Part shown: positions 11,093-58,110 of the stretch, piece after piece | How positions within the stretch are numbered: position 1 is the stretch's first letter | Layout of the letters: every line of letters starts with the position of its first letter | Assembly (NCBI RefSeq): GCF_900102375.1 | Contig: NZ_FNBO01000003.1 | Location: 62,001 to 126,000 of the forward strand | From: Halorubrum xinjiangense | GTDB taxonomy: Archaea; Halobacteriota; Halobacteria; Halobacteriales; Haloferacaceae | Direction: 5' to 3' | DNA length: 64,000 nucleotides | The notes under the pieces: model-generated | Database searches by the model: none | Told to the model about the DNA's origin: nothing | What the model saw: only the letters and a program-made list of their open reading frames with translations | Program-made: the position numbers and the translations under genes

Positions 11093-11923
11093 GTGAGTTT
11101 CCGATACAGGCGGTCGGCTGAGACCGCCGTCCGGGTCGTCCGGGGGATCGTCAGCGAGAGCAGACGCAAGAACGTCCCGTTCATGGCCGGGAGCATCGCG
11201 TACTCAGCGTTCGTCTCGCTGCTGCCGCTCGTGCTGCTGCTGGTGATCGCAGCCTCCGTGATCGGCGGCGAGGCGCTCGCGGACCGCGTCCAGCGGCTCA
11301 CCGAGAGCTACCTCTCGCCGGCGGGCCAGACCCTGCTGGCCGACAGCATCGGGCAGGCCGGTACTCAGACCGGGCTGTCGGTCCTCGGCCTCCTCGTGCT
11401 GCTGTGGGGCGTACTCCGCGTCTTTCGCGCGCTCGACACCGCCTTCTCGGCGATATACGACACCCACGCGAAGAACGACCTCCGGAATCAGTTCACGGAC
11501 GGCGTCGTCGTCTTGGTGACCCTCGCAGGCGCGCTGTTGGCGGTGGTCGTCGCGGGGCTGAGCCTGCGGTACCTCCCGGACCTCCCGTTCCCGAGGCTGG
11601 TGCGAGAGGCGCTGCTGGTGGTCGGGCTCTCCGTCGTGTTCGTCCCCATCTACTACGTGTTCCCCGACGCGGACCTCTCCGTGAAGATGGTCCTCCCCGG
11701 CGCCGTCGTCGCCGCCGTCGGCTGGGCGCTGCTCAACGCCGGGTTCGGCATCTACGTCCGCTACTCGTCGGCGGGGGACCTCTACGGCGTCATCGGCGGC
11801 GTCATCCTCCTCATCACGTTCCTCTACTTCGGCGCCCTGGTGATCCTGATCGGCGCTGCGACGAACGTCGTCCTGATGGGGCGCCGCCGTCCGAATGCCG
11901 TCAAGACGGTGGAGCCCCGGTGA
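11093..11923 (+). CDS. YihY/BrkB-family integral membrane protein
   Basis: About 276 residues with six membrane segments. After an Arg-rich N-terminus it has the family start SRRKNVPFMAGSIAYSAFVS and continues LLPLVLLLVIAASVIGGEAL, later LWGVLRVFRALDTAFSAIYD and SSAGDLYGVIGGVILLITFL, all typical of YihY/BrkB proteins (once mis-named RNase BN). Function is unclear; export or envelope roles are proposed. I choose GTG 11093 because GGAGG at 11082-11086 lies six bases before it; an upstream GTG at 11078 is in frame. A 46-codon frame overlaps its stop codon. Confidence 0.88.
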   Translation: MSFRYRRSAETAVRVVRGIVSESRRKNVPFMAGSIAYSAFVSLLPLVLLLVIAASVIGGEALADRVQRLTESYLSPAGQTLLADSIGQAGTQTGLSVLGLLVLLWGVLRVFRALDTAFSAIYDTHAKNDLRNQFTDGVVVLVTLAGALLAVVVAGLSLRYLPDLPFPRLVREALLVVGLSVVFVPIYYVFPDADLSVKMVLPGAVVAAVGWALLNAGFGIYVRYSSAGDLYGVIGGVILLITFLYFGALVILIGAATNVVLMGRRRPNAVKTVEPR

Positions 11924-12060
11924 CGGCCTCGACGCCGCTTCCGTCGATATCCGTTCTTCGGGAGGAATTCCATGCGAAAAGCAGTTCAGTGGAGGTGCCT
12001 CTTGAGCGATTTCGGGAGTGGGTATCGCAGATCGGTGGCGACGAAACGGTATTTAAATAG
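11920..12060 (+). CDS. Possible 46-residue ORF coupled to the YihY gene
   Basis: GTG 11920 overlaps the TGA stop (11921-11923) of the YihY gene as GTGA and opens a 46-codon frame ending at TAG 12060. The C-terminal two thirds, VLREEFHAKSSSVEVPLERF then REWVSQIGGDETVFK, looks like real protein, with amphipathic helix character, unlike the Arg/Pro-rich translations of GC-rich non-coding DNA nearby. It could be a small coupled gene or the 3' end of a lost gene. No family is recognised. Confidence 0.4.
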   Translation: MTASTPLPSISVLREEFHAKSSSVEVPLERFREWVSQIGGDETVFK

Positions 12061-12083
12061 TCGTGAGCGACCACAGCGATCAC

Positions 12084-12090
12084 TTATAAA
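12084..12090 (+). promoter_or_regulatory. TATA box at the head of repeat copy A
   Basis: TTATAAA in the context CACTTATAAAGG, 11-17 bp before the conserved GTGGCGCGCCTGCGAGC start of copy A. At usual archaeal spacing, transcription would begin near 12112-12116, at the foot of the first hairpin. Confidence 0.5.
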
Positions 12091-12100
12091 GGCCTATGCG

Positions 12101-12400
12101 GTGGCGCGCCTGCGAGCGGCCGCCACCGGCGGCCGCGAGCCAGCCCGCGAGGGACGCGGTGAGCGACGGGCGACCGGAGGGAGCCCGAGTGAACCGCGAG
12201 GCTGGGGAGGTGTGAGGCTGCGGTTGCGGTGCCGTGCGGGGCGGGACTCAAAGGGGCAGTCGCGAAGCCGCCGCAGACGACGCAAGCACCGCAATGAGTG
12301 AGCGGAGCGAACGAGTGAGGAGCGCAGCGAGTGTGTGGCGGCTTCGCGGCTGGGGCTTTGGAGGTGTTCGCCGTCGATCCACAGTCAGCCATTTATAAGC
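12101..12400 (+). ncRNA. Structured repeat element copy A (candidate non-coding RNA)
   Basis: Head to tail it holds: hairpin I (arms 12116-12124 and 12128-12136, nine pairs, loop ACC); hairpin II (CGCGGT 12155-12160 with ACCGCG 12193-12198, inner CGGGC/GCCCG); the conserved GGCTGGGGAGGTGTGAGG (12200-12217) and GCGGGACTCAAAGGGGCAG (12241-12259); hairpin III (12261-12272 with 12337-12348, extended by CAG/CTG and, across a GGG-GGG internal loop, CAAAG/CTTTG); then the 57-bp tail unit with TTTATAAG at 12392. Copies B, C and D keep the pairing while the arm sequences differ. Reading frames across it are not conserved between copies, so it is unlikely to be coding. Confidence 0.6.
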
Positions 12401-12488
12401 GAGCGACTGGGGCTTTGGAGATCGGCATCCCAGCAGCGCCGGTCGCGTATAAATGACCGACAGCAACACCGTGCTCTGACTTATAAAC
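12401..12488 (+). repeat. Degenerate second tail unit after copy A
   Basis: After CGAGCGACTGGGGCTTTGGAG (12400-12420) the sequence diverges, but a TATA-like GTATAAAT recurs at about 12447-12454, close to 57 bp after the TTTATAAG of the first tail unit. A third TATA-like run, CTTATAAACG, follows at about 12480. This appears to be a decayed form of the tandem 57-bp array seen beside copy B. Confidence 0.5.
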
Positions 12489-12816
12489 GACCGACCAACT
12501 GTACCGATACACGTACTCCCGCTAGCTCACCCGATCTCTGTACTGACCGATCTACGGTCGATACTTCCGGGGTTGCGCGGCTGAATCAACCGCACGATCT
12601 CGCTTGCGAACTAGTCGTTGACAGTTCTACCAGCTCAGAGGGATGTTCTGATTGCCGTGCAAAATGTACGTGCATATGCCCCACACCAACCCGTCGGTCG
12701 CGACTGGTGGGATGGCGAGATCTCATGTTGATCGTGCTGCCGGGCGCAGAAGCGACCGCTCCGGCCCCGCCCCGAATTCCCGATGATCTTATATCCGCCG
12801 ATAGACTGTCCTTCTC
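12489..12816. other. Lower-GC intergenic stretch
   Basis: About 330 bp without a convincing gene. Base composition is visibly less GC-rich than the surrounding chromosome, and the open frames lack codon bias. At the end a TATA-like CTTATATCC (12788-12796) precedes the GTG at 12817 by about 25 bp. Confidence 0.5.
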
Positions 12817-13470
12817 GTGCGCATCTCGTCTCTCGCCGCGCTGACGGGACTGGTCATCGCCAACCTCGTTCCCATCGTCGGTGTGCTCGTATTCGGATGG
12901 CAGGCGCTCGACCTCCTGCTACTGTACTGGCTTGAGGCGGCCGTTGTCGGCGTGTTCACCGTGGTGCGGGTGTTGCTGGCCATGGGTGACCCGAACGATA
13001 CCGGCCTGGGCGCGCTGTTCGGGTTCGACAGATACACCGGGCCGGGTGCCGGGACAAGCAACGTCCGGTTCGGGGCCGTGGCGCTGTTCTGCTTTCAATA
13101 CGGGCCGCTCTGGGTGGTGCACGGCGCGGTGCTCTTCTTGCTCCCCAGGTTCGCCTTCGAGCCGCTTGGCTGGGAGCCACTGGCCGTGTTGCCGACGCTC
13201 CTGCCCGCCGTTGGCGCGATGGCCCTGAGCCACAGTCTCTCGTTTGGCATGGGGTTCCTCGCCGGTGGGGCCTGGGAGCGTACCGCTCCGGTCGCCCAGG
13301 TGTTCGCGGTGTTTCCACGGCTCCTCGTGCTCCACTACGCGGTCCTCATCGGCGGCTTCGGGGCCGCGACGTTGGGGTCCCCGTTGTTCGCGCTCGTCGT
13401 GCTCATTGTGCTCAAGACGGCCGCCGACTTGCTCGTCGAGTACGCCGAGCCCATCCTCCGAGCGGCGTGA
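12817..13470 (+). CDS. DUF6498-like integral membrane protein
   Basis: 217 residues, about six membrane segments. Its start, LAALTGLVIANLVPIVGVLV then FGWQALDLLLLYWLEAAVVG, with the motif LLLYWLE, is typical of the DUF6498 family, which is widespread in haloarchaea and of unknown function. A loop with RYTGPGAGTSNVRFGAVALF follows. The start is a GTG; the TATA-like box 25 bp upstream supports a leaderless transcript beginning there. The gene sits in the gene-poor island between repeat copies A and B. Confidence 0.8.
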   Translation: MRISSLAALTGLVIANLVPIVGVLVFGWQALDLLLLYWLEAAVVGVFTVVRVLLAMGDPNDTGLGALFGFDRYTGPGAGTSNVRFGAVALFCFQYGPLWVVHGAVLFLLPRFAFEPLGWEPLAVLPTLLPAVGAMALSHSLSFGMGFLAGGAWERTAPVAQVFAVFPRLLVLHYAVLIGGFGAATLGSPLFALVVLIVLKTAADLLVEYAEPILRAA

Positions 13471-13552
13471 CGGGCAGGACGCTCACGTCGTCGGAGCGGG
13501 TCACAAGTGTACTCGTCACGTCCCTCGTGTTGCGATCTCGCGCGGCCCCTAG

Positions 13553-13705
13553 GTCGTTGCGGCGGACCGTAGCATTATCGAAGCCGGCGACGACGGCCGG
13601 CGCGACGACTGTGAGTGTCCGGCCGTCGACGGCGTCGAACACTCGTGTCGGCCGTGCTACGGGGACGGGTTCGACGTCTCGGACCCAAACGTCGACAAGG
13701 AGTGA
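13553..13705 (+). pseudogene. C-terminal remnant of a cysteine-rich protein
   Basis: Reading from 13553 gives an open frame without a start codon, bounded upstream by TAG, ending at TGA 13703-13705: ...SIIEAGDDGRRDDCECPAVD, then GVEHSCRPCYGDGFDVSDPN. The pattern CxC...C..CY.DGF resembles, from memory, the zinc-binding tail of haloarchaeal SWIM-finger proteins. No N-terminal part is found before it, so I read it as the 3' end of a deleted gene. The overlapping Arg/Ser/Thr-rich frame at 13467-13745 is less protein-like. Confidence 0.45.
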
Positions 13706-14175
13706 ACTGGCGGTCTACACTTACTTGCCTTGCCGCAGCGGGTAGGGGTGGCAAGCGCCGAGAATTGTGTCACTAGTTACCGCATTGGGGATGTCAATAC
13801 TTCGGATGCGATAGGAGGCCTCCGCTTGAGAGTGTTAACTCGGTTTTGAACGCAAGAGTGGCAATGTACCTATCCTTCGAGGTGTGTCACGGCGTCCGGC
13901 AAGCGTCGTAGTATACTACAAATCCCGATGTTGATCTCGACGATTTCTCATGGCTAGTGATGACTGTAGCCACTGTATCTCGCACGCTGCTACTGACACG
14001 CCGTGGAGAGGTCGGCGTTCGACATCGGTACGTGAGTTCCCTCTACTGAGCGATCAAGGGTGTGAATAATTCCACCTCCGAAGGAGGTCAACAGAACCAC
14101 ATACACCTACTATCGATATCTCCGATTTCCTGCGGTCAATAAAAAGCTTATACAACCGGTGAACCATCGCCATGT
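13706..14175. other. Gene-free low-GC stretch with promoter
   Basis: About 470 bp, more AT-rich than the rest of the window. I find no gene or clear repeat. A TATA-like CTTATAC (14147-14153) at its end lies about 27 bp before ATG 14176, preceded by CAATAAAAAG, a plausible BRE/TATA pair. Confidence 0.5.
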
Positions 14176-14586
14176 ATGGATTCGCGGGTCGTATCGTTTC
14201 TTCTCGGGGAGTCGTTGAAACGATCGCTCCGGTATCTCGGGTACGCGGTCGTTCTCATGGCCTTGTGCTTCGGTCAGCTCTATCTTGCTGGAAATTCGGA
14301 GATCGGAAACTCATCGAGTTTATCTATCAGTCCGCTTGGAGCCACTGTAGTAGCGACTATTTTGGCGGGGATACACACGTATCGAAACGACGGACTACTC
14401 ATGAGTATCGCCGTCGCCGCGATCATCGTGAGCGGCTATACACTGTACAGTGCCACCGCTCTTGCTCACCCCCAACCCGACTATGGACTGTTAACCGGCG
14501 TGGGGACCGCAATGTTGTATGGCGTCCCAATCGGGATGATATCATCTGCGGTTGCGTATGCGTTACGGCGATTTGCTCTGATCTAA
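14176..14586 (+). CDS. Small membrane protein (136 aa), low-GC
   Basis: Four membrane segments lie near residues 19-37, 52-68, 73-92 and 104-130. The protein is Leu/Ala/Ile-rich with few acidic residues, and its codons use more A/T than the neighbouring genes, which suggests an acquired or relaxed gene. The leaderless promoter at 14147-14153 supports ATG 14176. I recognise no family. It lies just inside the tandem repeat array that precedes copy B. Confidence 0.7.
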   Translation: MDSRVVSFLLGESLKRSLRYLGYAVVLMALCFGQLYLAGNSEIGNSSSLSISPLGATVVATILAGIHTYRNDGLLMSIAVAAIIVSGYTLYSATALAHPQPDYGLLTGVGTAMLYGVPIGMISSAVAYALRRFALI

Positions 14587-14701
14587 TCTCTTGTGGTGTC
14601 TGAGAAAAATAGAGAGATACAGATACCCCACTGAGTGAACGGGCGGTACTTCTCGCGACTGTTTATAAGCGATTGATACCACTGTGCTGAACAACGCCAA
14701 C

Positions 14702-14929
14702 GCCCCAGCCGCTCGCTTATAAATGATAGACGGTGGATCGACGGCGAACATTTCCAAAGCCCCAGCCGCTCGCTTATAGATCGTAGATGGTGGGTCGATG
14801 GCGGACACCTCCAAAGCCCCAGCCGCTCGTTTATAAATGGTAGACGGTGGATCGACGGCGGACATCTCTAAAGCCCCAGCCGCTCGTTTATAAATGGTAG
14901 ACGGTGGATCGACGGCGGACATCTCTAAA
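14702..14929 (-). repeat. Tandem 57-bp repeat, four units
   Basis: Units begin at 14702, 14759, 14816 and 14873, exactly 57 bp apart, each starting (on the plus strand) GCCCCAGCCGCTCG, followed by a TTATAAATG-like box and GGTGGATCGACGGCG. The last two units are nearly identical; the second is the most diverged (TTATAGATC). A fifth start at 14930 merges into hairpin III of copy B, so the array is a serial duplication of the tail of that element. Each unit carries a nearly palindromic TATA-like box. The 19-residue periodic translation on the minus strand is a by-product (57 is divisible by three). Confidence 0.9.
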
Positions 14930-15190
14930 GCCCCAGCCGCGGGGGCGGCGCACGCTCGCTGTGCTCCTCACTCGGTCGCTCACTTCGTTCGCTCCCTCGT
15001 TGCGGTGCTTACATCGCCTGCGCCGCCCCCGCGGCTGCCCCTTTGAGTCCCACCCCGCTCCGCACAGCACAGCGCCTCACGCCTCCCCAGCCTCGTCGGC
15101 CGGTCTCCGCTTCGCTCCGACCGGCCGACTCCCTCGCGCGTGCTGACTCGCGGCCGCCGATGGCGGCCGCTCGCAGGCACGCGCCAGCGT
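14921..15190 (-). ncRNA. Structured repeat element copy B (candidate non-coding RNA)
   Basis: Minus-strand copy. Hairpin III arms are 14937-14951 and 15020-15034, 15 perfect pairs, with a sequence different from copy A. Hairpin II pairs GTCGGCCGG with CCGGCCGAC (about 15095-15130) and hairpin I has GCGGCCGCC with GGCGGCCGC around 15150-15170. The conserved GGGACTCAAAGGGGCAG block is at about 15035-15051. A TATA box, TTTATAAA at 15198-15205, sits before the head. The tail runs into the tandem 57-bp array. Confidence 0.6.
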
Positions 15191-15197
15191 ACTTCCC

Positions 15198-15205
15198 TTT
15201 ATAAA
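15198..15205 (-). promoter_or_regulatory. TATA box at the head of repeat copy B
   Basis: Palindromic TTTATAAA followed on the minus strand by GGGAAGTACGCTGGCGCGTGC, the same position relative to the element as in copies A and C. A further TTTTATAC lies about 30 bp upstream, near 15229-15236. Confidence 0.5.
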
Positions 15206-15378
15206 CGACTACTGCTGTCGCTCACACCTTTTATACACCGTACCACCGCCGCAGATCTGATTCTCTGACTTCCGCTATCGATCGTCGCTATCTCTACAGT
15301 GAGCGCTCGAAGCTGTATCGACCGACCGGAGTCAGATTCCGAGAACCGCGAACGCGGCCGGGCACTGATGCGTCCCGC

Positions 15379-16959
15379 TCACTCGACGGGGACGACGACG
15401 AGCGACAGCTCGTCCTCCGTGGCGGTTTCGAGGGCCGAACGGAGCTCCGAGAGCGAGGTCGGACGGTAGCTCTCGATCCCGAAGCTGTCGGCGAACGCGA
15501 CGAAGTCGGGGTTCGTCAACTCGGTCCCGAACGACTCGCCGGTGTGGGCGGTCTGTTTCTCCGAGATGAGCCCGTAGTCGTCGTCGTTGAAGAGCAGGAT
15601 CGTGAACGAGCAGTCCATGCGCGTCGCCGTCTCGATCTCGGCGGCGTTCATCAGGAAGCCGCCGTCGCCCGTCGCCGCGACGACGTTCGCGTCGACCGCG
15701 AGGTCGGCCGCGACCGCGCCCGGGACCGCGATCCCCATCGAGGCGAAGCCGTTCGAGACGATACACGTGTTGGGCTCGTAGGTCGGGAAGTTCGCCGCGA
15801 TCGCCATCTTGTGGCTGCCGACGTCCGAGACGAGGACGTCTTCGGGCGCCATCGCCTTGCGTAAGGCCGGCAGCACCGACCGGACGGTGAACGGCGGGCC
15901 GTCGGGCGGGTCTCGGTCGACGTCCGCGGCGATCCGCTCGCGGTACTCCCGGTACCAGTCGGCGTCGTACGACGGTCCCTCGTCGCGGTACCAGTCGAGG
16001 AGCGACCCGAGCGTCCGCTCGATGTCCGCGACGACCTCGACGTCGGGGTCGTACGCCTCGTACACCTCCGCGGGCTCGCTGTCGACGTGGACGAGCGCGG
16101 TCCCCTCATCGCGCCAGGCCGCAGGGTCGTGTTCGGCGATGTCGTAGCCGACGGTGACGACGAGGTCCGCCGCCGCGATGGCGCGGGTCGGCTCGTCGTT
16201 CGCGCCCGAGTCGAGCGTCATCAGCGAGCGGTGGTCGGCGTCGGAGACCGCGCCCTTCCCCATGTACGTGGAGACGACGGGGACGTCGGCGGCGTCGACG
16301 AACTCCCGGAGCCGCGTCGCGGCGTGCGTGCGAACGGCGCCGTTGCCGGCGACGAGTATCGGCCGGTCGGCGTCTCGGAACATCGCTTTCACCCGGTCGA
16401 GCGCGTCGGGGTCGGGCGCGGCGAACGGCACCCGGTCGCCGGGGTCCATCGGCCGCGTTTTGGTCTCCGCCGCGGCCACGTCCTCGGGGAGTTCGAGGTG
16501 CGTGGCGCCGGGCTTCTCGTACTGCGCGAGCTTGAACGCCTTCCTGACCGACTCGTGGACGATGTCCGGGCTGTCGAGCTGCGTGTTCCACTTCGTCACG
16601 GCGCCGAACGTCCGGAGGACGTCGATCGCCTGGTGGCTCTCCTGGTGGAGCCGTTCGAGCCCGCCCTGCGCGGTGATCGCCACCAGCGGGCTCTTGTCGA
16701 GGTGGGCGTCGGCGACCCCGGTCAGGAGGTTCGTCGCGCCGGGGCCGAGCGTGGCGAGACAGACGCCGGCGTCCCCCGTCAGCCGTCCGTGGACGTCGGC
16801 CATGAACGCCGCGCCCTGCTCGTGGCGGACGGGGATGAACTCGACCGAGGAGTCGCGCAGCGAGAACAGCAGGTCCTCCATCTCTTCGCCGGGCAGGCCG
16901 TAAACGCGCTCGACGCCCTCGCGTTCGAGGCAGGCGACGAGCAGGTCGGAGACCTTCAT
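15379..16959 (-). CDS. ThDP-dependent enzyme, acetolactate synthase large-subunit-like
   Basis: 526 residues in the three-domain order of ThDP 2-oxoacid enzymes. The N-terminal Pyr domain has YGLPGEEMEDLLFSLRDS and the catalytic Glu in PVRHEQGAAFMADVHGRL; the middle domain has ILVAGNGAVRTHAA; the C-terminal PP domain has the ThDP motif GDGGFLMNAAEIETATRMDC and FNDDDYGLI. This fits acetolactate synthase, but the family also holds decarboxylases and oxidases. No small regulatory subunit is nearby. Its ATG shares a base with the stop of the upstream aldehyde dehydrogenase (TGATG), so the two are translated together, which suggests a catabolic step rather than branched-chain amino-acid synthesis. 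Confidence 0.88.
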   Translation of the reverse strand: MKVSDLLVACLEREGVERVYGLPGEEMEDLLFSLRDSSVEFIPVRHEQGAAFMADVHGRLTGDAGVCLATLGPGATNLLTGVADAHLDKSPLVAITAQGGLERLHQESHQAIDVLRTFGAVTKWNTQLDSPDIVHESVRKAFKLAQYEKPGATHLELPEDVAAAETKTRPMDPGDRVPFAAPDPDALDRVKAMFRDADRPILVAGNGAVRTHAATRLREFVDAADVPVVSTYMGKGAVSDADHRSLMTLDSGANDEPTRAIAAADLVVTVGYDIAEHDPAAWRDEGTALVHVDSEPAEVYEAYDPDVEVVADIERTLGSLLDWYRDEGPSYDADWYREYRERIAADVDRDPPDGPPFTVRSVLPALRKAMAPEDVLVSDVGSHKMAIAANFPTYEPNTCIVSNGFASMGIAVPGAVAADLAVDANVVAATGDGGFLMNAAEIETATRMDCSFTILLFNDDDYGLISEKQTAHTGESFGTELTNPDFVAFADSFGIESYRPTSLSELRSALETATEDELSLVVVPVE

Positions 16960-18320
16960 CACTCCACCCACACCGTCTTGCGGTTGACGAACTCGCGGAT
17001 GCCGTCGCCGGCGAGCTCGCGGCCGTACCCCGAGTCGCCCACGCCGCCGAAGGGGACCCGCGGGTCGGACTTGACGAGCTGGTTGACGTACACGCAGCCC
17101 GCGTCGATCCGGCGGGCGACGCGCTCGCCGCGGTCGCGGTCCGCGGTCCAGACGCTCGCGCCCAGCCCGAACTCGGTGTCGTTCGCGAGTTCGACCGCGC
17201 TCGCCTCGTCGGCGACCTCGTACACCGCCGCGACGGGCCCGAACGTCTCCTCGCTGTCGACCGGACACCCCTCGGGCACGTCCGTCAGGATCGTCGGCGG
17301 GTAGAACGCCCCCTCGCGGTCGAGCGGCTCGCCGCCGGTGACGAGCGTCGCACCCGCCTCGACGCTCGCCGTCACCTGGTCGTGGAGGTCCGACAGTAGG
17401 TCCGGCTTCGCCTGCGACCCGAGGTCGGTGTCGTCGGCCATCGGGTCGCCCACGGCGAACGACTCGACCTCGTCCGTGAAGCGGCGGCGGAACTCGTCGT
17501 AGACATCGGTGTGGACGACGAACCGCTTGGCCGCGATACAGGACTGGCCGCCGTTCTTGTTGCGCGCCCAGGCCCCGGTCTCGGCCGCGTCGGCGACGTC
17601 GGCGTCGTCGAGGACGACGAACGGGTCGCTCCCGCCGAGTTCGAGGACGGTCTTCTTGAGGTGTTCGCCCGCGGTCGCCGCGACCGCGCTGCCGGCCGGC
17701 CCGCTCCCGGTTACCGTCGCCGCCCGGACACGGTCGTCGGCGAGGATGTCGTCGACGCGGTCGGAGGAGATCAGTAGCGACTGAAACGCGCCCTCGGGGA
17801 AGCCGGCGTCGCGGAACACCGACTCGATGGCGAGCGCGCAGCCCGGCACGTTCGAGGCGTGTTTGAGCAGGCCGACGTTACCAGCCGCGAGGGAGGGCGC
17901 GGCGAACCGGAACACCTGCCAGAACGGGAAGTTCCAGGGCATCACCGCCAGCACCGGTCCCAGCGGCTCGTAGACCGTCTTCGCGGTCGTCCCCGGCGGG
18001 CTGGGATGATGGTCGGCACTCAGATAGGTGCTCGCGTGCTCGGCGTAGTGATCACAGCCCTGCGCGCACTTTTCGACCTCCGCGACTGCCTGGTCGATCG
18101 GTTTCCCCATCTCGCGGGTGATCGTCTCGGCGTACTCGCGCTTGTTCTCCCGAAGGGTGTCGGCCGCGGCCGAGAGCAGCCGCTCCCGGTCGCGCATCGG
18201 TCGCTCGCGCCACTCCTCGAAGGCGTCGCTCGCCCGGTCGAGGGCGTCGTCGACCTCCCCTTCCGTGTGTTCCTCGTAGGAGTCGAGTTGCTCGTCAGTC
18301 GCGGGGTTGACAGCGTCCAT
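16959..18320 (-). CDS. NAD(P)-dependent aldehyde dehydrogenase, succinate-semialdehyde type
   Basis: 453 residues. Rossmann-type cofactor binding is seen in GPVLAVMPWNFPFWQVFRFA and VTGSGPAGSAVAATAGEHLK; the catalytic Glu lies in LELGGSDPF and the nucleophilic Cys in NGGQSCIAAKRF. The C-terminal bridging domain has EETFGPVAAVYEV and VPFGGVGDSGYGREL. The short length and GSGPAGSAV pattern fit the GabD-like group oxidising small aldehydes such as succinate semialdehyde. A TATA-like CTAACTATC near 18346-18354 lies about 29 bp before ATG 18320. It overlaps and is coupled to the ThDP enzyme gene. Confidence 0.9.
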   Translation of the reverse strand: MDAVNPATDEQLDSYEEHTEGEVDDALDRASDAFEEWRERPMRDRERLLSAAADTLRENKREYAETITREMGKPIDQAVAEVEKCAQGCDHYAEHASTYLSADHHPSPPGTTAKTVYEPLGPVLAVMPWNFPFWQVFRFAAPSLAAGNVGLLKHASNVPGCALAIESVFRDAGFPEGAFQSLLISSDRVDDILADDRVRAATVTGSGPAGSAVAATAGEHLKKTVLELGGSDPFVVLDDADVADAAETGAWARNKNGGQSCIAAKRFVVHTDVYDEFRRRFTDEVESFAVGDPMADDTDLGSQAKPDLLSDLHDQVTASVEAGATLVTGGEPLDREGAFYPPTILTDVPEGCPVDSEETFGPVAAVYEVADEASAVELANDTEFGLGASVWTADRDRGERVARRIDAGCVYVNQLVKSDPRVPFGGVGDSGYGRELAGDGIREFVNRKTVWVE

Positions 18321-18415
18321 GGATCGGAGACGGGGAGGCGGCCGATAGTTAGGCGTTCGCTATTCCCACCTCGACGCGGGAGTCTCGGCGCCGCCGTCGC
18401 TCGTCGGTTAAAACA

Positions 18416-18489
18416 CGGGCCGGGCGCGATTTGAACACGCGACCGACGGATTAAGAGTCCGTCGCTCTCCCTAACTGAGCTACCGGCCC
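18416..18489 (-). tRNA. tRNA-Lys (anticodon CUU)
   Basis: The minus strand folds as a full cloverleaf of 74 nt: acceptor GGGCCGG/CCGGCCC, D arm with AGCTCAGTTAGGGAGAGC, anticodon stem ACGGA/TCCGT around the loop CTCTTAA (anticodon CTT), and T arm with GTTCAAATC. No intron is visible and CCA is not encoded. It lies upstream of the ALDH gene on the same strand. Confidence 0.95.
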
Positions 18490-18651
18490 TCACTCAGTCG
18501 TATCAGCGTCGACGTAAAAGGCCTTTTCATTCGGCGGCGCGCGAGCCGCGTCGGTCGACCGAGAAATCGACGGATGAGACCGGGATGCCGCACCCCCGAC
18601 GCTCGCTATCATGGGAAACGGTTATCAACACCCGTGATGTACGAGTGTCGT

Positions 18652-19662
18652 ATGTCAGACAACCCAATCGGAGAACGTGTTGACCGTCGGACGCTCCTCC
18701 GCGGGGCGGCCGCGGCAGGTGTCGTCGGACTAGCTGGCTGTTCGGGCGGCGGCGACGGAGATGACGGCGGCGATGGAGACGACGGCGGCGACGGCGGCGG
18801 CGCAGACGTCATCCGCTGGCACGCCGGCGGCACCGGCGGGACGTACTTCCCGCTCTCCGGTGAGTTCGAGGGGATCATCGAGGACACGACCGACTTCCCG
18901 GTCGAGGTCTCCTCGACGGGTGCGTCGGTCGAGAACGTCGGCAGCCTCGGCAACGGCGACGCCGACTTCGCGCTGATCCAGAACGACGTCGCCTACTTCG
19001 CCCGCAACGGGGAGGGCCTCGACGCGTTCGAGGGCGCCGCGGTGGAGAACCTCCGCGGCGTCGCGACGCTGTACCCGGAGACGATCCACGTGCTCCTCAA
19101 CCCCGAGGCGGACGTGGGCTCGCTGTCCGATCTCGAGGGCATGCGCGTCAACACCGGCGACCTCGGCAGCGGGACGCAGGTGAACGCGCTCCAGATCCTC
19201 GAGTCGGCGGCCGGCCTCACGACCGACGACTTCGAAGAGCAGAACACCGACTTCACGCAGGCGGCGAACCAGCTCCGCGACGGCGACGTCGACGCGGCCT
19301 TCGTCGTCGGCGGCTGGCCCGTGGGCGCGGTCGAAGAGCTCGCGACGACCACGGACGTCCAGATCCTCAACATGTCTGACGAGGAGCGGCAGGCCGCCCG
19401 CGACGACGCCTCGTGGTTCGCCGACGACACCATCCCCGCCGGCACCTACGAGGGCATCGACGAGGACGTCGACACCGTCTCGGTACAGGCGATGATCGCG
19501 ACGCGGTCGGAGTTCTCGGCGGACACGGTGGAGGCCGTCACCGAGGCCATCTTCGAGAACCTCGACCAGCTCTCGATCAAGACGGACTTCATCAGCGCCG
19601 ACTCCGCGCAGGACGGGATGTCGATCGAGCTCCACGAGGGCGCGGCCCGCTACTTCGAGTAG
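18652..19662 (+). CDS. TAXI-family TRAP transporter solute-binding lipoprotein
   Basis: 336 residues. The N-terminus has a twin-arginine pair in VDRRTLLRGAAAAGVVG followed by the lipobox GLAGC, so it should be exported by Tat and lipid-anchored outside. An Asp/Gly linker leads to the TAXI domain: HAGGTGGTYFPLSGEF, STGASVENVGSLGNGDADFA, LIQNDVAYFARNG, then AFVVGGWPVGAVEEL. It captures a small organic acid for the TRAP permease at 20237. I choose ATG 18652 because a TATA-like TTATCAA at about 18622 is 27-30 bp upstream; ATG 18637 is also in frame. It heads a three-gene operon. Confidence 0.92.
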   Translation: MSDNPIGERVDRRTLLRGAAAAGVVGLAGCSGGGDGDDGGDGDDGGDGGGADVIRWHAGGTGGTYFPLSGEFEGIIEDTTDFPVEVSSTGASVENVGSLGNGDADFALIQNDVAYFARNGEGLDAFEGAAVENLRGVATLYPETIHVLLNPEADVGSLSDLEGMRVNTGDLGSGTQVNALQILESAAGLTTDDFEEQNTDFTQAANQLRDGDVDAAFVVGGWPVGAVEELATTTDVQILNMSDEERQAARDDASWFADDTIPAGTYEGIDEDVDTVSVQAMIATRSEFSADTVEAVTEAIFENLDQLSIKTDFISADSAQDGMSIELHEGAARYFE

Positions 19663-19663
19663 C

Positions 19664-20185
19664 GTGACATCCGGGTCGCGACTGCCGTCGAGTCGGCGCG
19701 GAACCGCCCTCTTCGCGGTCGCCCTCGCGGCGACCCTCGCGACCGCGACCGGGGCTGGGTACGCCCTCGGTGCGGTCGACGCCGTCGCTGGCGGCCCGAC
19801 GCTGGTCGTGACCGACGACAGCGGTACCGAACTAGTGACGGCGCCGGTCTCCGAGGAGACGGAGGTCGTCATCGAGTACACGCACAGCGTGGAGAAGACG
19901 ACCGTCCGCGACGTGTACGTCCCGAGAGACGGGGAGCTAGTGATGACTCGGATGGAGTTCAGCTCCTTCGGGGCGGGGCTCCCGTCGCAGGCGGACGTGA
20001 CCGAACGCGACGGTCGATACGTCTTTGAACCGCCGTCAGAATCGTACTCGACGCTACACCTCAAAACGGGGACCGTCGCCGACCACGATCTGGTCGTCGG
20101 CGACGAGCGGTACGACATCGCGGGGATGACCGACGGCGGCGCGGTCGAGCTGACGGTCGAACGGCGGGCGATCCCGGCGCTGTAA
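19664..20185 (+). CDS. DUF1850 protein of the TAXI-TRAP operon
   Basis: 173 residues with a GTG start one base after the receptor stop. A hydrophobic N-terminal helix (about residues 14-38) is followed by a beta-rich domain: IEYTHSVEKTTVRDVYVPRD, then MTRMEFSSFGAGLPSQADV, the signature of DUF1850. In bacteria and archaea this domain is often found between a TAXI receptor and a fused TRAP permease, as here, so it probably helps that transporter at the outer face of the membrane. Its exact role is not known. Confidence 0.88.
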   Translation: MTSGSRLPSSRRGTALFAVALAATLATATGAGYALGAVDAVAGGPTLVVTDDSGTELVTAPVSEETEVVIEYTHSVEKTTVRDVYVPRDGELVMTRMEFSSFGAGLPSQADVTERDGRYVFEPPSESYSTLHLKTGTVADHDLVVGDERYDIAGMTDGGAVELTVERRAIPAL

Positions 20186-20236
20186 TCGCCGCCGGGGAGA
20201 CCGGTCGCGAGACGGTGACACGAGGGTGACACAACT

Positions 20237-22930
20237 GTGAGCACGAACACATCGGACGGGGTCGAATCGGACGACGAAGGGACCGAAGTGGCCGATCAGG
20301 TATTCGAGGAGATCGACAACAGGCGCTCGCTGACGGGGGTCGGACTGGTCGCCGTGGCGCTCGTCGGGATCGTCTTCTCGGCGTACCAGCTGTGGCTCGG
20401 CGCTCGGGGATTCGTCTTCGAGTTCACCGTGCCGGGCCTCACGACGGTCAGGCTCGGCGCGCTCTCCTCGCTCCAAGTGCGCGCGATCCACGTCAACTTC
20501 GCGCTCGTGATGGCGTTCCTGCTCTTTCCGGGATCGAACGGAGCCGGTGCGATCACGGGTCGCCTCGCCGCCCTCCCGTCGCTCGCGCGGGACCGCCTCG
20601 GCGACTCTTCGGCGACGCGCGCGGTCGAGGGGGTCCGCCGGGGCGTCTGGTGGCTGTTCGTTGACGAGGGGTCAACGCGGATCACGCCCTCGGACCTCGG
20701 ATTAGTCCTGCTGTCGACGTTCCCGACCGCCTACTACCTCACGCAGTACGACGAGATCACGGACATCATCCGCGTGCGGGGACTCGGCGGCGCCGGGTCT
20801 CTCGGGGAGGTCGTCCCGTGGCTCTCGTTCGCGGAGGTCGGGTTCCTCGCCGAGTACAGCCTCGCGTACCTGATGGGCGTGCTCGCGATCCTCCTCGTGT
20901 TGGAGGCGACCCGGCGGGCGCTCGGCCTGCTGCTCACGCTGCTCGTGAGCCTCTTCCTTTTGTACGCCAAGTACGGCTACCTGCTGCCGCGGGACCTCCC
21001 CGTCGCGCGGACGTTCGCGACCTCGGAACTCCGCTGGGGCCAGATCGTCCAGAACCTCTGGTACACGGTGGAGGGGATCCTCGGCGTGCCTGTCGGCGTC
21101 TCCGTGCGGTTCATCTACATCTTCATCCTGTTCGGCGCGTTCCTCGAGATGTCCGGCGCGGGCAAGTGGTTCATCGACCTCGCGTACTCGATCACGGGCA
21201 CTCGAAAGGGTGGCCCGGCGAAGGCCAGCGTCGTCGCCTCCGGGTTCATGGGGATGCTCTCCGGCTCCTCCGTCGCGAACACGGTGACGACCGGCGCGCT
21301 GACGATCCCGCTGATGAAACGCTCGGGCTACTCGCCGGAGTTCTCGGGCGCCGTCGAGTCCTCCGTCTCCTCCGGCGGCCAGATCCTCCCGCCGGTGATG
21401 GGCGCGGCCGCGTTCCTCATCGTCGAGTACACCGGGACCCCCTTCCGCGACGTGGTCATCGCCGCGACGCTGCCGGCCATCGCCTTCTTCTTCGGGATGT
21501 GGGTGATGGTCCACTTCGAGGCCGCGAAACGCGAGATCGGCGGGCTCTCTCGGTCTGAGCTGCTCGATCTGGGGCCACACATGCGCCGCGGCTGGTTCTA
21601 CCTCGTCCCGCTCGGGCTCCTCCTCTACTACCTCGTCATCGCCCGGCTCTCGGTCGGCCGCGCCGGGTGGCTCACGATCGTCGCGACGGTCGCGCTTATC
21701 GCGATGGTCGCTGCGTATAACGAGCGGACTGGCCGGTACCTCGTCGGGGCGATCGCCGCCGGCTACGCGCTGTTCGCCGCCTCGCTGGCCACGCTCGGCG
21801 TGACGCCGATCGAGTTGGCGTACGGCGCCGAGGCCGCCGAGTTCGGCCTGACGGCGGCGCTGAGCGAGGCCCTGTCCTCTCTGCCGACGGTCATCACGGC
21901 GATCAGCCTCGCCTTCCTCCTCGCCGACCCGCGCGGAGACGCGCCCCTGCTCGACCTCGACGACGACGTGGTCGGCGCCGCGAATTGGTTCGACGAGCGG
22001 GGCGGGTCCGACGTCGCGTCGTCCCGGGCGGGACAGTTCGGCACCTTCGTGCTGAAGGCGATGGAGTCGGGCGCCAAGACCGCGACAATCGTCGTCGTCG
22101 CGGTCGCCGCGGCCGGGATCATCCCCGGGGTCATCGGGATCACCGGACTGGGCGGGAGCCTCCGCGCGCTCATCATCAGCGTGAGCGGCGGGTCGCTCGT
22201 CCTCCTGTTGATCCTCGCCGGGCTCGCGGCCGTGATCGTCGGGATGGGGATGCCGACGACGGTGATGTACATCATCATCGTCGTGCTGCTCGGGCCGGTT
22301 CTCCCCGAGTTCGGGATCGCGATCTTAGCGGTCCACCTGTTCGTCCTCTACCTCGGGCTGATGGCTGACGTGACCCCGCCGGTGATGGTCGCCGCGTACG
22401 CCGCGGCCGGGATCGCGAAGTCCGACCCGTTCGACACGGGGAAACAGGCGTTCCTGCTGTCCCTGAACAAGATCCTCGTCCCCTTCGCGTTCGTGTTCTC
22501 GCCGGGAATCCTGCTCCTTCGGACGCGGGAGGGCCAGGGGTCGATCATCACCGGCGCCGACGTCGCCGACCTCGGCTACTTCCTCCCCGAAGTGGTCGTC
22601 CCGATCGTCGCGATGTTCGCTGGGGTGTACGCGCTCGGCGTCGCGATCATCGGCTACTTCCGGACCGACGTGCGGTCCGGGTCGCGCGTCTCGCTGGTCG
22701 CCGCGGCCGTGCTGCTGTCGGTCCCCGGAATGGTGCTGCTGCCGGCGAGCGCCGCGTTCGGGCTGGTCGGCGTCGACGTCTCCCTCTACTCGGTGACGAA
22801 CGATGTCGCGGCGCGCGGGGTCGGTGCCGGCATCCTCGCCGTCGCGCTCGTCCGGAATCTGCGCCGCGCGAGCGGCGGGACGGCTCAGCCGTCGACGGCG
22901 GAGGAGTCCGCGGACGCCGCCTCACAGTAG
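20237..22930 (+). CDS. Fused TRAP transporter permease (4TM/12TM)
   Basis: 897 residues, GTG start, about 18 membrane segments. The N-terminal part corresponds to the small DctQ-like subunit region; the remainder is the DctM-like large subunit with MGMLSGSSVANTVTTGALTI and MKRSGYSPEFSGAVESSVSS, later IVGMGMPTTVMYIIIVVLLG and LYLGLMADVTPPVMVAAYA. It imports a small carboxylate using the sodium or proton gradient together with the TAXI receptor at 18652. The substrate cannot be read from sequence. It is the last gene of the operon. Confidence 0.93.
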   Translation: MSTNTSDGVESDDEGTEVADQVFEEIDNRRSLTGVGLVAVALVGIVFSAYQLWLGARGFVFEFTVPGLTTVRLGALSSLQVRAIHVNFALVMAFLLFPGSNGAGAITGRLAALPSLARDRLGDSSATRAVEGVRRGVWWLFVDEGSTRITPSDLGLVLLSTFPTAYYLTQYDEITDIIRVRGLGGAGSLGEVVPWLSFAEVGFLAEYSLAYLMGVLAILLVLEATRRALGLLLTLLVSLFLLYAKYGYLLPRDLPVARTFATSELRWGQIVQNLWYTVEGILGVPVGVSVRFIYIFILFGAFLEMSGAGKWFIDLAYSITGTRKGGPAKASVVASGFMGMLSGSSVANTVTTGALTIPLMKRSGYSPEFSGAVESSVSSGGQILPPVMGAAAFLIVEYTGTPFRDVVIAATLPAIAFFFGMWVMVHFEAAKREIGGLSRSELLDLGPHMRRGWFYLVPLGLLLYYLVIARLSVGRAGWLTIVATVALIAMVAAYNERTGRYLVGAIAAGYALFAASLATLGVTPIELAYGAEAAEFGLTAALSEALSSLPTVITAISLAFLLADPRGDAPLLDLDDDVVGAANWFDERGGSDVASSRAGQFGTFVLKAMESGAKTATIVVVAVAAAGIIPGVIGITGLGGSLRALIISVSGGSLVLLLILAGLAAVIVGMGMPTTVMYIIIVVLLGPVLPEFGIAILAVHLFVLYLGLMADVTPPVMVAAYAAAGIAKSDPFDTGKQAFLLSLNKILVPFAFVFSPGILLLRTREGQGSIITGADVADLGYFLPEVVVPIVAMFAGVYALGVAIIGYFRTDVRSGSRVSLVAAAVLLSVPGMVLLPASAAFGLVGVDVSLYSVTNDVAARGVGAGILAVALVRNLRRASGGTAQPSTAEESADAASQ

Positions 22931-23056
22931 GGTCGGTCGTCTGCGGCCGCACCGCCCGCACCGCCCGCGCCGCCCGTACCGCCCGTACCGGGGTCGCGTA
23001 TGCCGTTTCGCGCGAAGAGCGCACTCGTTAAGTGTCGCGCCGCGGAATTCCCCCTA

Positions 23057-24523
23057 ATGAGTAGTGGGGCATCCGGATCCGCGCGGACCCGTTACGCCAT
23101 CCTCGGCTGTGGGAGCGTCGGTCACGCGGTGGCGGAGGAACTGACCGAGCGCGGCAAGGACGTCCTCATCCTCGACCGCGACGAGAGCCGGGTCGAGGCG
23201 CTCCGCGATCAGGACCTCAACGCGCGCGTCCAGGACATCGCCGAGTCCGACGTCGTCGACGAACTCGCCGACCGCGACATCGTGTTGATCCTCGCCAGCG
23301 ACGTGGAGGCGAACAAGGCCGCCGTCTCCGCGGTCAGAGAGACTGGGGGCGACCACTACGTCGTCGTCCGGGCCTCCGATCCCGTCAGCGAGGACGAGCT
23401 GCGCGAGCGTGGCGCCGACGTCGTGATCAACCCTTCGACGGTGATCGCCGACAGCGCGCTCCAGTCGCTGGAGACGGGCGAGCTAGAGTACATGGCCCGC
23501 CAGCTGGCGGAGATAATCGGGGAGGGCGGCGACCGGATGGCGATCCTCACCCACGACAACCCCGAGCCGGACTCGATCGCGTCCGCGACCGCGCTCCAGG
23601 CGATCGCCGAAGCGTTCGGCGTCGACGCCGACATCATCTACTCCGGCGACGTCGGCCACCAAGAGAACCGGGCGTTCGTCAACCTCCTCGGGATCGACCT
23701 GCTCGCCCGCGGCGAGGCGCCGGCGCTCTCGGAGTACGCGACCGTCGCGGCCGTCGACCTCGCGAAGGCCGCCGCGGAGGACCTCGAACTCGAAACGTCG
23801 ATCGACATCTACCTCGACCACCTAGAGTCCGAGGTGCCGTTCGACGCGCGGTTCGTCGACGTGCGGACCAACGTCTCCTCGACGTCGACGATCCTCACGA
23901 AGTACCTCCAGGAGTTCGACCAGTCGCCGTCGGAGGCGGTCGCGACCGCGCTCCTCTACGGGATCCGCGCCGAGACGCTGGACTTCAAGCGGGACACGAC
24001 CCCGGCGGACCTGACCGCCGCCGCGTACCTCCACCCGTTCGCGAACCACGACACGCTCGAACAGGTGGAGTCGCCGTCGATGAGCCCGGAGACGCTGGAC
24101 GTGCTCGCGGAGGCGATCCAGAACCGCGAGGTCCAGGGGAGCCACCTCTTCTCGACGGCCGGGTTTATCCGCGACCGCGAGGCGCTCGCGCAGGCCGCCC
24201 AACACCTGCTCAACTTGGAGGGAATCACGACGACGGCCGTGCTGGGCATCGCCGACGAGAAGATCTACCTCGCGGCGCGCTCGAAGGACATCCGGCTGAA
24301 CATCGGCAACGTCCTCGACGAGGCGTTCTCCGAGATGGGCGACGCCGCCGGCCACTCGACGCAGGGCTCATTAGAGATCCCGCTCGGCATCTTCACCGGC
24401 ATCGAGGCGAGCGGCGAGAACCGCGACACGCTCCTCCACCTCACCGAGGAGGCGGTCCGCCGGAAGCTGTTCGACGCGCTCGGCGTCGAGGGCGGGAGCG
24501 GCGACGGCTCGAACGGGTCCTAA
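23057..24523 (+). CDS. DHH-family phosphoesterase with N-terminal TrkA-N domain
   Basis: 488 residues. Residues 10-130 form a Rossmann TrkA-N domain (YAILGCGSVGHAVAEELTER, GxGxxG, acidic residue in ILDRDE), which usually binds NAD or a nucleotide. The DHH catalytic domain follows (THDNPEPDSIASATALQAIA, later AAVDLAKAA), then DHHA1 with GIADEKIYLAARSK and GDAAGHSTQGSLEIPLG. This fusion is common in haloarchaea. It should hydrolyse short nucleic acids or cyclic dinucleotides, possibly with allosteric control by the N-terminal domain. ATG 23057 is chosen; a TATA-like CGTTAAGTG about 27 bp before it supports a leaderless start. Confidence 0.88.
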   Translation: MSSGASGSARTRYAILGCGSVGHAVAEELTERGKDVLILDRDESRVEALRDQDLNARVQDIAESDVVDELADRDIVLILASDVEANKAAVSAVRETGGDHYVVVRASDPVSEDELRERGADVVINPSTVIADSALQSLETGELEYMARQLAEIIGEGGDRMAILTHDNPEPDSIASATALQAIAEAFGVDADIIYSGDVGHQENRAFVNLLGIDLLARGEAPALSEYATVAAVDLAKAAAEDLELETSIDIYLDHLESEVPFDARFVDVRTNVSSTSTILTKYLQEFDQSPSEAVATALLYGIRAETLDFKRDTTPADLTAAAYLHPFANHDTLEQVESPSMSPETLDVLAEAIQNREVQGSHLFSTAGFIRDREALAQAAQHLLNLEGITTTAVLGIADEKIYLAARSKDIRLNIGNVLDEAFSEMGDAAGHSTQGSLEIPLGIFTGIEASGENRDTLLHLTEEAVRRKLFDALGVEGGSGDGSNGS

Positions 24524-24605
24524 CCCCCGCAACTGTCGGCCCTGGAAGCGCCGCCTCGGCGGGGCCGTTTTCCGGCTTGGCGCCGTAGCCGCGGACAGAC
24601 GCCGC

Positions 24606-24839
24606 ATGTACGTTCCCAAGGACCCGCCGCCGGACTGCCCCGCCTGCGGGGATCCGTACGACTCAGTCTCCCGGCACACCGAGGGGTTCGTCGCGAACCT
24701 GATCGACAACGAACGCTACCAGCGCGTCTGCTTCCAGCCGGTGAGCGACGGCAGCGACCCCGCGCTCGACTGTTACCATCACACACACGAGCAGGCCGGC
24801 ACAAGCGAGCGGGCGGCACCCGACAAAAAAGGCGACTGA
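24606..24839 (+). CDS. Small zinc-finger-like protein
   Basis: 77 residues beginning MYVPKDPPPDCPACGDPYDS, with the CPACG knuckle and a later CYHHTHEQ segment that could complete a zinc site. The tail is Lys/Glu-rich. It looks like a conserved haloarchaeal small protein but I cannot name the family. It follows the DHH gene by 82 bp on the same strand and converges with the nucleotidyltransferase gene. Confidence 0.75.
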   Translation: MYVPKDPPPDCPACGDPYDSVSRHTEGFVANLIDNERYQRVCFQPVSDGSDPALDCYHHTHEQAGTSERAAPDKKGD

Positions 24840-24875
24840 GCGCGGTCGGCAAGGGGCCGTCCGCGGACGGCGCGT

Positions 24876-25850: not shown

Positions 25851-25981
25851 ACGGCTACCGTCTCACCCCGGTGACATACCTCTTGCGCCCGCGTCATCGT
25901 TCAGAGCGAGCGCGTCGCCGTCGTCGGGGATCCGCGTCGCGATCCCGGACGGTTTTACTCGGCGCGCCGCGAAGAATCCGT

Positions 25982-26293
25982 ATGGAGACGACGCGCCAGC
26001 GGATCGCCGACGCGCTCCGCGAGGAGCCGCGGACCGCGAGCGACCTCGCGGCGACGCTCTCGCTGCCGACGCCCGTCGTGTACGAACACCTCGAACACGT
26101 CTCGCGGTCGGTCGCGGACGGCGACCAGCCGAGCGGCGACGGGGGCGGGAGCAGGGGCGAGGAGTTTCTCGTCGCGCCGCCGACCTGCCGCGAGTGCGGC
26201 TTCGACGGCTTCGACGACCCGGTCAACGAGCCGTCGCGGTGTCCGGAGTGTAAAAGCGAGCGGATCGAGGAACCGGCGTTCGTGATCCGGTAA
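25982..26293 (+). CDS. Predicted winged-helix regulator with zinc ribbon
   Basis: 103 residues. The N-terminal part, METTRQRIADALREEPRTAS then DLAATLSLPTPVVYEHLEHV, is a helix-turn-helix. After a Gly/Ser linker the C-terminal half has a zinc ribbon, CRECGFDGFDDPVNEPSRCP followed by EC. This matches archaeal predicted transcriptional regulators with HTH and zinc ribbon. A TATA-like GTTTTAC near 25951-25957 is about 28 bp before the ATG, supporting the start. Targets are unknown. Confidence 0.85.
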   Translation: METTRQRIADALREEPRTASDLAATLSLPTPVVYEHLEHVSRSVADGDQPSGDGGGSRGEEFLVAPPTCRECGFDGFDDPVNEPSRCPECKSERIEEPAFVIR

Positions 26294-26308
26294 GGAGTCA
26301 GTTCGGGA

Positions 26309-26986: not shown

Positions 26987-27057
26987 GTGTACCCCGTTAT
27001 TCGTGACCTCGACATAAAAGGTGTCCGCGCCCGGCAGCGGCGAGGGGCGGCGCGGTG

Positions 27058-27065
27058 TTTATAAA
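27058..27065 (+). promoter_or_regulatory. TATA box at the head of repeat copy C
   Basis: TTTATAAA, identical to the box before copy B, about 30 bp before the GGCGCGCGCC block of the element and about 45 bp from the divergent box of the PfpI-like gene. Confidence 0.5.
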
Positions 27066-27069
27066 TGAA

Positions 27070-27430
27070 CGTAGCGGTGCGGTCGGCGCGCGCCTCCGAG
27101 CGGCCGCCCCGGCGGCCGCGAGTAGGGAGAGACCGAAGGTCTCTCTGACAGCCGGCGGCGGAGCCGCCGGCGAGAGCGCGTGCGAGGGACGCCGTGAGTG
27201 ACGGGCGACCGAAGGGAGCCCGGAGCGAACGGCGAGGCTGGGGAGGTGTGAGGTGCGGTTGCGGTGCGGGGCGGGACTCAAAGGGGCAGCCGGGAGGACG
27301 AAGCCGCGTGACGCAAGGACCGCAGGAACGAGTGAAACGAGTGACGAGGACCGCAGCGAGCGCACCGAGTCCTCCCGGCTGGGGCTTTGGCGGTGCTCGC
27401 TGTCGATCTACTGTCAGCAATTTATAACCG
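27070..27430 (+). ncRNA. Structured repeat element copy C (candidate non-coding RNA)
   Basis: Hairpin I has CGGCCGCC and GGCGGCCG around 27100-27118. An insertion unique to this copy (27123-27180) adds two perfect hairpins, GAGAGACC-gaa-GGTCTCTC and GCCGGCGGC-gga-GCCGCCGGC. Hairpin II pairs CGCCGT with ACGGCG (about 27190-27233) around inner CGGGC/GCCCG. The conserved GCGGGACTCAAAGGGGCAG is at 27271-27289, hairpin III pairs 27290-27299 with 27369-27378 (ten pairs, sequence unlike A, B or D), and the tail CTGGGGCTTTGG starts at 27379, ending with the TATA-like ATTTATAACC near 27420. Confidence 0.6.
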
Positions 27431-27478
27431 AGCGGCCGGGGATTCGACAGCGTTTGCCGCCGGCTCGCTGTCAACGAC

Positions 27479-28048: not shown

Positions 28049-28068
28049 GTCGCCGGTACTCGGGCGGA

Positions 28069-28077
28069 TTAATAAAG
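28069..28077 (-). promoter_or_regulatory. TATA box of hpt
   Basis: CTTTATTAA on the minus strand, centred 25 bp before ATG 28048, fits a leaderless haloarchaeal promoter. Confidence 0.6.
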
Positions 28078-28149
28078 CGTGGCGATCCCCCGGCTCCGTG
28101 GAGCGCGATCGCACGAAACTAGGACGCGTAGTCGCTGTGTGTCTCACCA

Positions 28150-28450
28150 CTGAACCCCCAGTCGCTCGGCTATACGTGGGTCTCTTCTGATCGATGGCGA
28201 CCTTCTCCAAAGCCCCAGCCGCGAGGCCACAGTACGCTCGCTGCGCTCCTCGGTCGCTCACTTCGTTCGCTCCCTGCGGTGCTTACGTCGCCTACTGTGG
28301 CCTCGCGGCTGCCTCTTTGAGTCCCGCCCCGCACCGCAACCGCGCCTCACGCCTCCCCAGCCTCGTCGGCCGGCCGGAGCGAAGCGGAGGCCGGCCGACT
28401 CCCTCGCGCGTGCGACTTCGCGCCCTCTGGGCGCTCGTCGGCACGCGCCA
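28150..28450 (-). ncRNA. Structured repeat element copy D (candidate non-coding RNA)
   Basis: Minus-strand copy. Hairpin III arms are 28219-28234 and 28293-28308, 16 perfect pairs, the longest of the four. Hairpin II pairs GTCGGCCGGCC with GGCCGGCCGAC (about 28360-28398). Hairpin I is GCGCCC-aga-GGGCGC (about 28420-28434), differing from the GGCCGCC arms of A-C but still paired. The GGGACTCAAAG block is at about 28314-28324, with AGGCAG in place of GGGCAG. The tail holds a weaker box, CGTATAGCC. The head box is also weak (GGCTATCAG, about 28462-28470). It begins 33 bp after the enoyl-CoA hydratase stop. Confidence 0.6.
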
Positions 28451-28483
28451 CCTTCCAGTACTGATAGCCGGTCTGCGGTCGCG

Positions 28484-57986: not shown

Positions 57987-58070
57987 CCGGCGAGTGAGAG
58001 CCCCGGCGAGTGAGAGCCCCGGCGAGTGAGAGCCCCGGCGAGTGAGAGCCCCGGCGAGTGAGAGCCACAG
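57987..58070. repeat. 17-bp tandem repeat upstream of the second acs gene
   Basis: The unit GGCGAGTGAGAGCCCCG is repeated about five times head to tail, with the last copy diverging to AGCCACAGCGAG. It begins some 45 bp before the acs start, immediately upstream of its TATA-like box, and ends 40 bp before the hflX stop. Copy number may vary between strains. Confidence 0.9.
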
Positions 58071-58110
58071 CGAGCGCGGCGGCGGACCGATCGCCGCCGA
58101 CCGCCCGCGG

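What the first reader, a model, noticed from the sequence alone, without database searches (positions are those of the whole stretch)
14702..14929. Tail of copy B amplified as a 57-bp TATA-bearing tandem array
Four units of exactly 57 bp repeat the 3' tail of the element. Every unit contains a TTATAAATG-like, nearly palindromic TATA box, giving a ladder of possible promoters or TBP sites. The tail unit is present once after A, C and D too, with a decayed second unit after A at the same 57-bp TATA spacing. So the unit is a definite module of the element and prone to duplication. TBP titration, multiple antisense starts or slippage are all possible.
Basis: partly seen in the sequence, partly recalled or inferred. 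Interest (0 to 1): 0.6.

Follow-up and report, generated by a model that had tools for sequence, protein, structure and literature searches.

The report
Growing repeat tail on archaeal mini-transposon
The 57-base repeats are the tail of a mini-transposon that sits in roughly 150 places in this salt-loving archaeon's genome; the tail copies itself in place, newest copies next to a large hairpin, and its TATA-like motifs lack the partner signal of the genome's normal promoters.

Summary
The array is real: four 57-bp units at 14702-14929 (two identical), plus a diverged fifth TATA-bearing segment. It is one of many. The element's core motif occurs 155 times in this 3.26-Mb Halorubrum genome (reversed-pattern control 2), in 48 of 52 Halorubrum genomes and almost nowhere else in the class. 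Full-length relatives are 580-830-bp non-autonomous insertion elements with ends like those of a 1,319-bp IS5-family IS in the same genome and 8-bp target duplications. The core carries a long hairpin with strong covariation, and each tail unit starts with a copy of that hairpin's 3' strand. Copies that keep both end blocks almost never have extra units (1 of 14); copies that lost them carry up to four. Unit number differs between species at the same locus, units within an array are homogenised, and identity falls from hairpin to outer end, so growth is mostly hairpin-proximal. The TATA motif is conserved in 57-bp units, yet both flanks lack the BRE signal, and arrays without TATA exist. 'Module prone to duplication' is right; promoter ladder and TBP titration are not supported, though transcription was not testable. 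Closest known kinds: BrickBuilt (MITE with minisatellite) and BOX elements.

The parts
14702..14929 (-). Tail array of element B: four 57-bp units (hairpin-proximal unit is 14873-14929)
14611..14701 (-). Diverged terminal segment of B with a fifth TATA (14662); matches the 3' end of a full-length copy
   Evidence: 67/92 aligned bases over 14611-14711
14930..15049 (-). Hairpin P3 and core motif GACTCAAAGGGGCAGC (15034-15049) of B
15050..15284 (-). Head of B: P2, P1, head TATAs (15198) and traces of the 5' end block (15181-15284)
   Evidence: 74/100 aligned bases with full-length copy
11940..12568 (+). Element A, nearly full length: 5' end block 11940-12108, core 12245-12260, one tail unit 12347-12403, own 3' end 12404-12568
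   Evidence: 125/164 and 131/156 aligned bases with a full-length copy
27055..27450 (+). Element C: head TATA, core 27275-27290, one tail unit 27376-27432
28150..28460 (-). Element D: core 28308-28323, one tail unit 28165-28221 with decayed TATA

Best explanation
The array is the locally amplified 3' module of a Halorubrum-specific, MITE-like (non-autonomous IS5-type) intergenic element. SHOWN: the element is dispersed and modular (head, P1, P2, core motif, hairpin P3, n tail units, 3' end). Full-length relatives have terminal inverted repeats like those of an IS5-family IS and 8-bp target duplications. Tail number differs at the same locus between species; units within an array are homogenised; similarity is highest next to P3; arrays are almost confined to copies that have lost their end blocks. 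INFERRED: because every unit begins with a copy of P3's 3' strand (GGCTGGGGCTTTGGAGG), that direct repeat of about 17-19 bp beside a long hairpin lets a nascent strand slip back one unit, or lets sister copies recombine unequally, so that a new unit appears next to the hairpin. The TATA motif rides along. It is an old, conserved subterminal motif present near both ends of the full-length element, possibly a protein-binding site, but it is not a standard BRE-plus-TATA promoter.
For: 155 core hits in the genome against control 2. 57-bp period genome-wide. Ends, target duplications and IS5 transposase. P3 covariation, including its basal helix with the first tail unit. Extra units in 1 of 14 copies with both end blocks against 67 of 103 others. 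Unit number varies at the hpt-like locus and other syntenic sites. Within-array identity 0.91 against 0.77 between loci. Terminal unit least alike in 45 of 54 arrays; hairpin-side pair more alike than the outer pair 10 to 4, 8 ties.
Against: Slippage and polar addition are inferred from identity gradients, not observed; gene conversion from the hairpin side could give a similar gradient. Of core-bearing copies only one has an exact 8-bp duplication (others 7 of 8). G022, which has recent copies, has no close homologue of the 273-aa transposase, so the mobiliser is uncertain. The strong conservation of TATA in old copies suggests some selection that pure hitch-hiking does not explain.
Confidence: 0.75

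Rival explanations
1. The array is a selected ladder of TBP/TFB sites or promoters, possibly bidirectional, that drives transcripts out of the element or antisense through it.
For: TATA at one fixed place in 57 of 60 units and near-invariant while the spacer has drifted. Total promoter scores 7.9/7.6, like real promoters (median 7.0) and near the 99th percentile of random DNA. BrickBuilt, a similar MITE, has bidirectional promoters in its leader and tail (PMC4596501).
Against: No BRE on either side; no directional preference; TATA-less arrays exist; elements avoid divergent gaps, where promoters lie (7 of 35).
Confidence: 0.15
2. Tail units are transposase- or host-protein-binding sites, as in the multi-site ends of some transposons, and their number tunes mobility.
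For: TATA-like motifs occur in pairs near both ends of full-length copies.
Against: Full-length, presumably mobile copies lack arrays; arrays sit in end-less copies.
Confidence: 0.07
3. The tail is part of a coding sequence, which would explain unit lengths that are multiples of three.
For: Lengths 48, 51, 54, 57, 60, 63, 66, 69 dominate; 56 and 61 occur at five loci only.
Against: No frame is consistently open (best 133 of 157 distinct units), no clear codon-position pattern, and variable P3 lengths break any frame into the core.
Confidence: 0.02

Closest known systems
BrickBuilt MITE of Porphyromonas gingivalis (PMC4596501)
   Same: MITE-like element with ends related to IS5-family IS, intergenic, distinct leader and tail, internal tandem repeat whose number varies between strains at stable loci
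   Different: 23-bp repeat and 19 copies in a bacterium; here 57-bp units, about 150 copies, a covarying hairpin core, and arrays in end-less copies, in an archaeon
BOX elements of Streptococcus pneumoniae (PMC3049150)
   Same: Dispersed modular intergenic repeat with structured outer modules and a variable number of tandem boxB modules; MITE-like ends proposed to match an IS
   Different: Unrelated sequence; array in the middle, not at the 3' side; no shared module
MITEs, PATEs and SMRs of Haloquadratum walsbyi (PMC3119063)
   Same: Transposase-free haloarchaeal mobile repeats; its MITEs have inverted ends related to known transposons and target duplications
   Different: No tail minisatellite appeared in the passages read; the core motif was found almost only in Halorubrum

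Membership tests
MITE (IS5-type) | Terminal inverted repeats matching an IS of the same host | tested here: met
   Full-length copies: 51/60 and 26/32 identical to the ends of the 1,319-bp IS of the window's genome; most resident copies, including B, have lost or decayed outer ends
MITE (IS5-type) | Target-site duplication of fixed length | tested here: met
   8 bp exact in one core-bearing copy (L330) and two coreless elements with the same ends (L332, L343); 7 of 8 in L342/L355 and L353
MITE (IS5-type) | Short, no transposase gene | tested here: met
   580-833 bp; no transposase ORF within the copies
MITE (IS5-type) | Mobilised in trans by that transposase | not testable with these tools
   Inferred from ends only; G022 lacks a close homologue of the transposase
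BOX / BrickBuilt | Sequence homology of modules | not tested
   No direct comparison made; the core is nearly confined to Halorubrum within the class. Filed as 'works like', not as a member
Haloarchaeal promoter (BRE + TATA) | BRE next to the TATA box | tested here: not met
   BRE-side score -0.6 / -0.9 in the two directions against +2.1 for genes
Haloarchaeal promoter (BRE + TATA) | Transcription start about 25 nt downstream | not testable with these tools
   No expression data
Known RNA family (Rfam) | Covariance-model match | tested here: not met
   Only a tRNA and two chance-level hits in 11900-29000

The most novel reading that the evidence does not exclude
The end-less copies are not junk but a domesticated, positionally stable family of structured elements that occupies about half of all large intergenic gaps, is often paired tail-to-tail around genes, and grows its protein-binding TATA tail by a directional, hairpin-driven mechanism that tunes neighbouring transcription or chromosome structure.
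Probability: 0.15. Interest if true: 0.7.

Novelty: new variant of a known kind. Interest (0 to 1): 0.42.

Why it matters
I found no earlier description of this family in the searchable papers. It sits in about half of the large intergenic regions read in this genome, offers hypervariable markers for Halorubrum, and gives about 150 natural replicates for studying polar, apparently hairpin-linked minisatellite growth in an archaeon. It also warns that TATA-like motifs in haloarchaeal intergenic DNA can belong to mobile-element ends and need not be promoters.

Tried and rejected
Rfam search: nothing relevant. Literature search for the core string: none; related searches gave only analogues. HF1-virus intergenic repeats: described as AT-rich, a different thing. 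Plasmids: one partial match; phages: none; viral contigs: none. IS6 family, first suspected from the 8-bp duplication: the PF13610 loci lack these ends, replaced by IS5. Coding tail: no consistently open frame. Promoter direction: scores equal both ways. Empty site for copy B: the congener with the flanking gene at 91% loses similarity right at the stop codon, so no clean empty site. Correlation with the transposase: present in 44 of 51 Halorubrum genomes, absent from some rich in elements, so not informative.

Full report
OBSERVATION. Unit 2 has TTATAGATC, not TTATAAATG. A fifth TATA at 14662 lies 54 bp beyond the outermost unit's TATA. Copy A shows the same 54-bp step, and there the segment is 131/156 identical to the 3' end of a full-length element. 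So what looked like a decayed second unit is the element's own end.

A LARGE FAMILY. The core GACTCAAAGGGGCAGC occurs 155 times in the 3.26-Mb genome with up to 2 mismatches (control 2). It is present in 48 of 52 Halorubrum genomes with 3 to 174 copies, 1 mismatch allowed (genus named from the records). In 391 genomes of the class it is otherwise nearly absent, apart from one genome of another genus with 54 copies of a one-base variant. In the 1.2 Mb read here (67 cores) no element lies inside a called gene. About half of the intergenic gaps of 350 bp or more carry one (65 of 135); convergent gaps are favoured (22 of 34) over divergent ones (7 of 35) (gene calls are from my own simple model).

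ANATOMY. In element orientation: TATA-like motif; GCGGTGGCGCGYGCC; hairpins P1 and P2; CGAGGCTGGGGAGGCGTGAGG; core; hairpin P3; tail units. P3 is one long hairpin: in 60 diverse copies each predicted pair forms in 50-60 of the sequences, with many two-sided changes and G-U intermediates. Its basal helix pairs TCAAAG of the core with CTTTGG of the first tail unit; the core A/G covaries with the unit's T/C (A:T 234, G:C 24, G:T 8, A:C 3). Hence every unit begins with a copy of P3's 3' strand.

THE TAIL UNIT. Consensus GCGGCTGGGGCTTTGGAGGTGTTCGCCGCCGATCCGCAGTCAACCATTTATAAGCGA. The start and the TATA motif are nearly invariant while parts of the spacer hold almost no information; TATA is at one fixed place in 57 of 60 units. 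Minor classes of 51 and 54 bp mostly lack TATA, yet form arrays, one with four identical 51-bp units.

ORIGIN. In a relative (G022) four recent copies share 88-95% identity. Full-length copies run 580-833 bp and end in GGCTCTGTTGAAACCCTATTCTTCA-like inverted repeats, with an exact 8-bp target duplication in one and 7 of 8 in others. A 1,319-bp IS in the window's own genome has matching ends (51/60 and 26/32) and encodes an IS5-family transposase. TATA-like motifs occur in pairs near both ends of the full-length form, so they are part of the element's subterminal regions. Copy A of the window is nearly full length; B keeps weaker traces of both ends.

HOW THE ARRAY GROWS. Copies with both inner end blocks have extra units in 1 of 14 cases, others in 67 of 103. 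At the hpt-like gene, elements sit on the same sides in the same orientation in about a dozen species; unit number differs (for D, one here and three to four in G010; for C, one here and two full units in G022), and the hairpin interior is replaced or even inverted. Most elements with syntenic flanks in relatives have a counterpart there. Units within a locus are 0.91 identical, between loci 0.77. In 45 of 54 arrays the terminal unit is the least alike, and the hairpin-side pair is more alike than the outer pair 10 to 4 with 8 ties. I infer addition next to P3, by strand slippage at a long hairpin or by unequal recombination between the unit starts; neither was observed directly.

PROMOTER QUESTION. 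A promoter motif learned from 392 regions upstream of divergent genes is a BRE-like CGGAA followed by TTTWT. Tail TATAs score like promoters in total, but only through the hexamer; the BRE side is negative in both directions, while real promoters score +2.1. The TATA is thus conserved and possibly a protein site, but not a typical promoter. No expression data were available.

KNOWN KINDS. BrickBuilt of P. gingivalis (IS5-type MITE with a 23-bp minisatellite) and pneumococcal BOX elements work alike. The Halorubrum element meets the tested MITE criteria in its full-length copies; most copies in this genome, including B, are end-less derivatives.

UNEXPLAINED. Neighbouring elements tend to face tail to tail: among pairs under 4 kb, 18 tails-inward, 1 heads-inward, 6 same (includes a few orthologous pairs and two tandem duplicates); median gap 9.2 against 17.3 kb. 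Unit lengths are nearly all multiples of three without a reading frame. Why TATA is kept in old copies is open.

Noticed in passing
A/B (12245/15034) and C/D (27275/28308); many loci in relatives: Neighbouring elements under 4 kb apart face tail to tail around one or a few genes: 18 tails-inward against 1 heads-inward; gaps of this kind are also shorter overall. No mechanism known.
   Followed up: partly
L131 and L144, element at the hpt-like gene: In two close species the P3 stem-loop at the same locus is in opposite orientation between its arms, so hairpin interiors invert or are swapped by conversion.
   Followed up: no
27120-27180; L052, L132, L140, L141: Extra small hairpins are inserted at fixed points of P1, P2 or P3 in some copies, as if a second small palindromic repeat targets the element.
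   Followed up: no
tail units of all loci: Unit lengths are 48, 51, 54, 57, 60, 63, 66, 69 bp, nearly always a multiple of three, although no reading frame is kept open.
   Followed up: partly
12569-14610: The A-B pair encloses an AT-richer stretch (59% G+C against about 69% for the genome) with a DUF6498 membrane protein and an ORF without Pfam match: possibly acquired DNA.
   Followed up: no
L332, L335, L343: Other short elements with the same IS5-type ends but without the core carry unrelated interiors, two with exact 8-bp duplications: the ends have been used by several non-autonomous families.
   Followed up: no
57987-58074: A near-perfect 16-bp tandem repeat (CCGGCGAGTGAGAGCC, 5.5 copies, 97% matches), unrelated to the element.
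   Followed up: no
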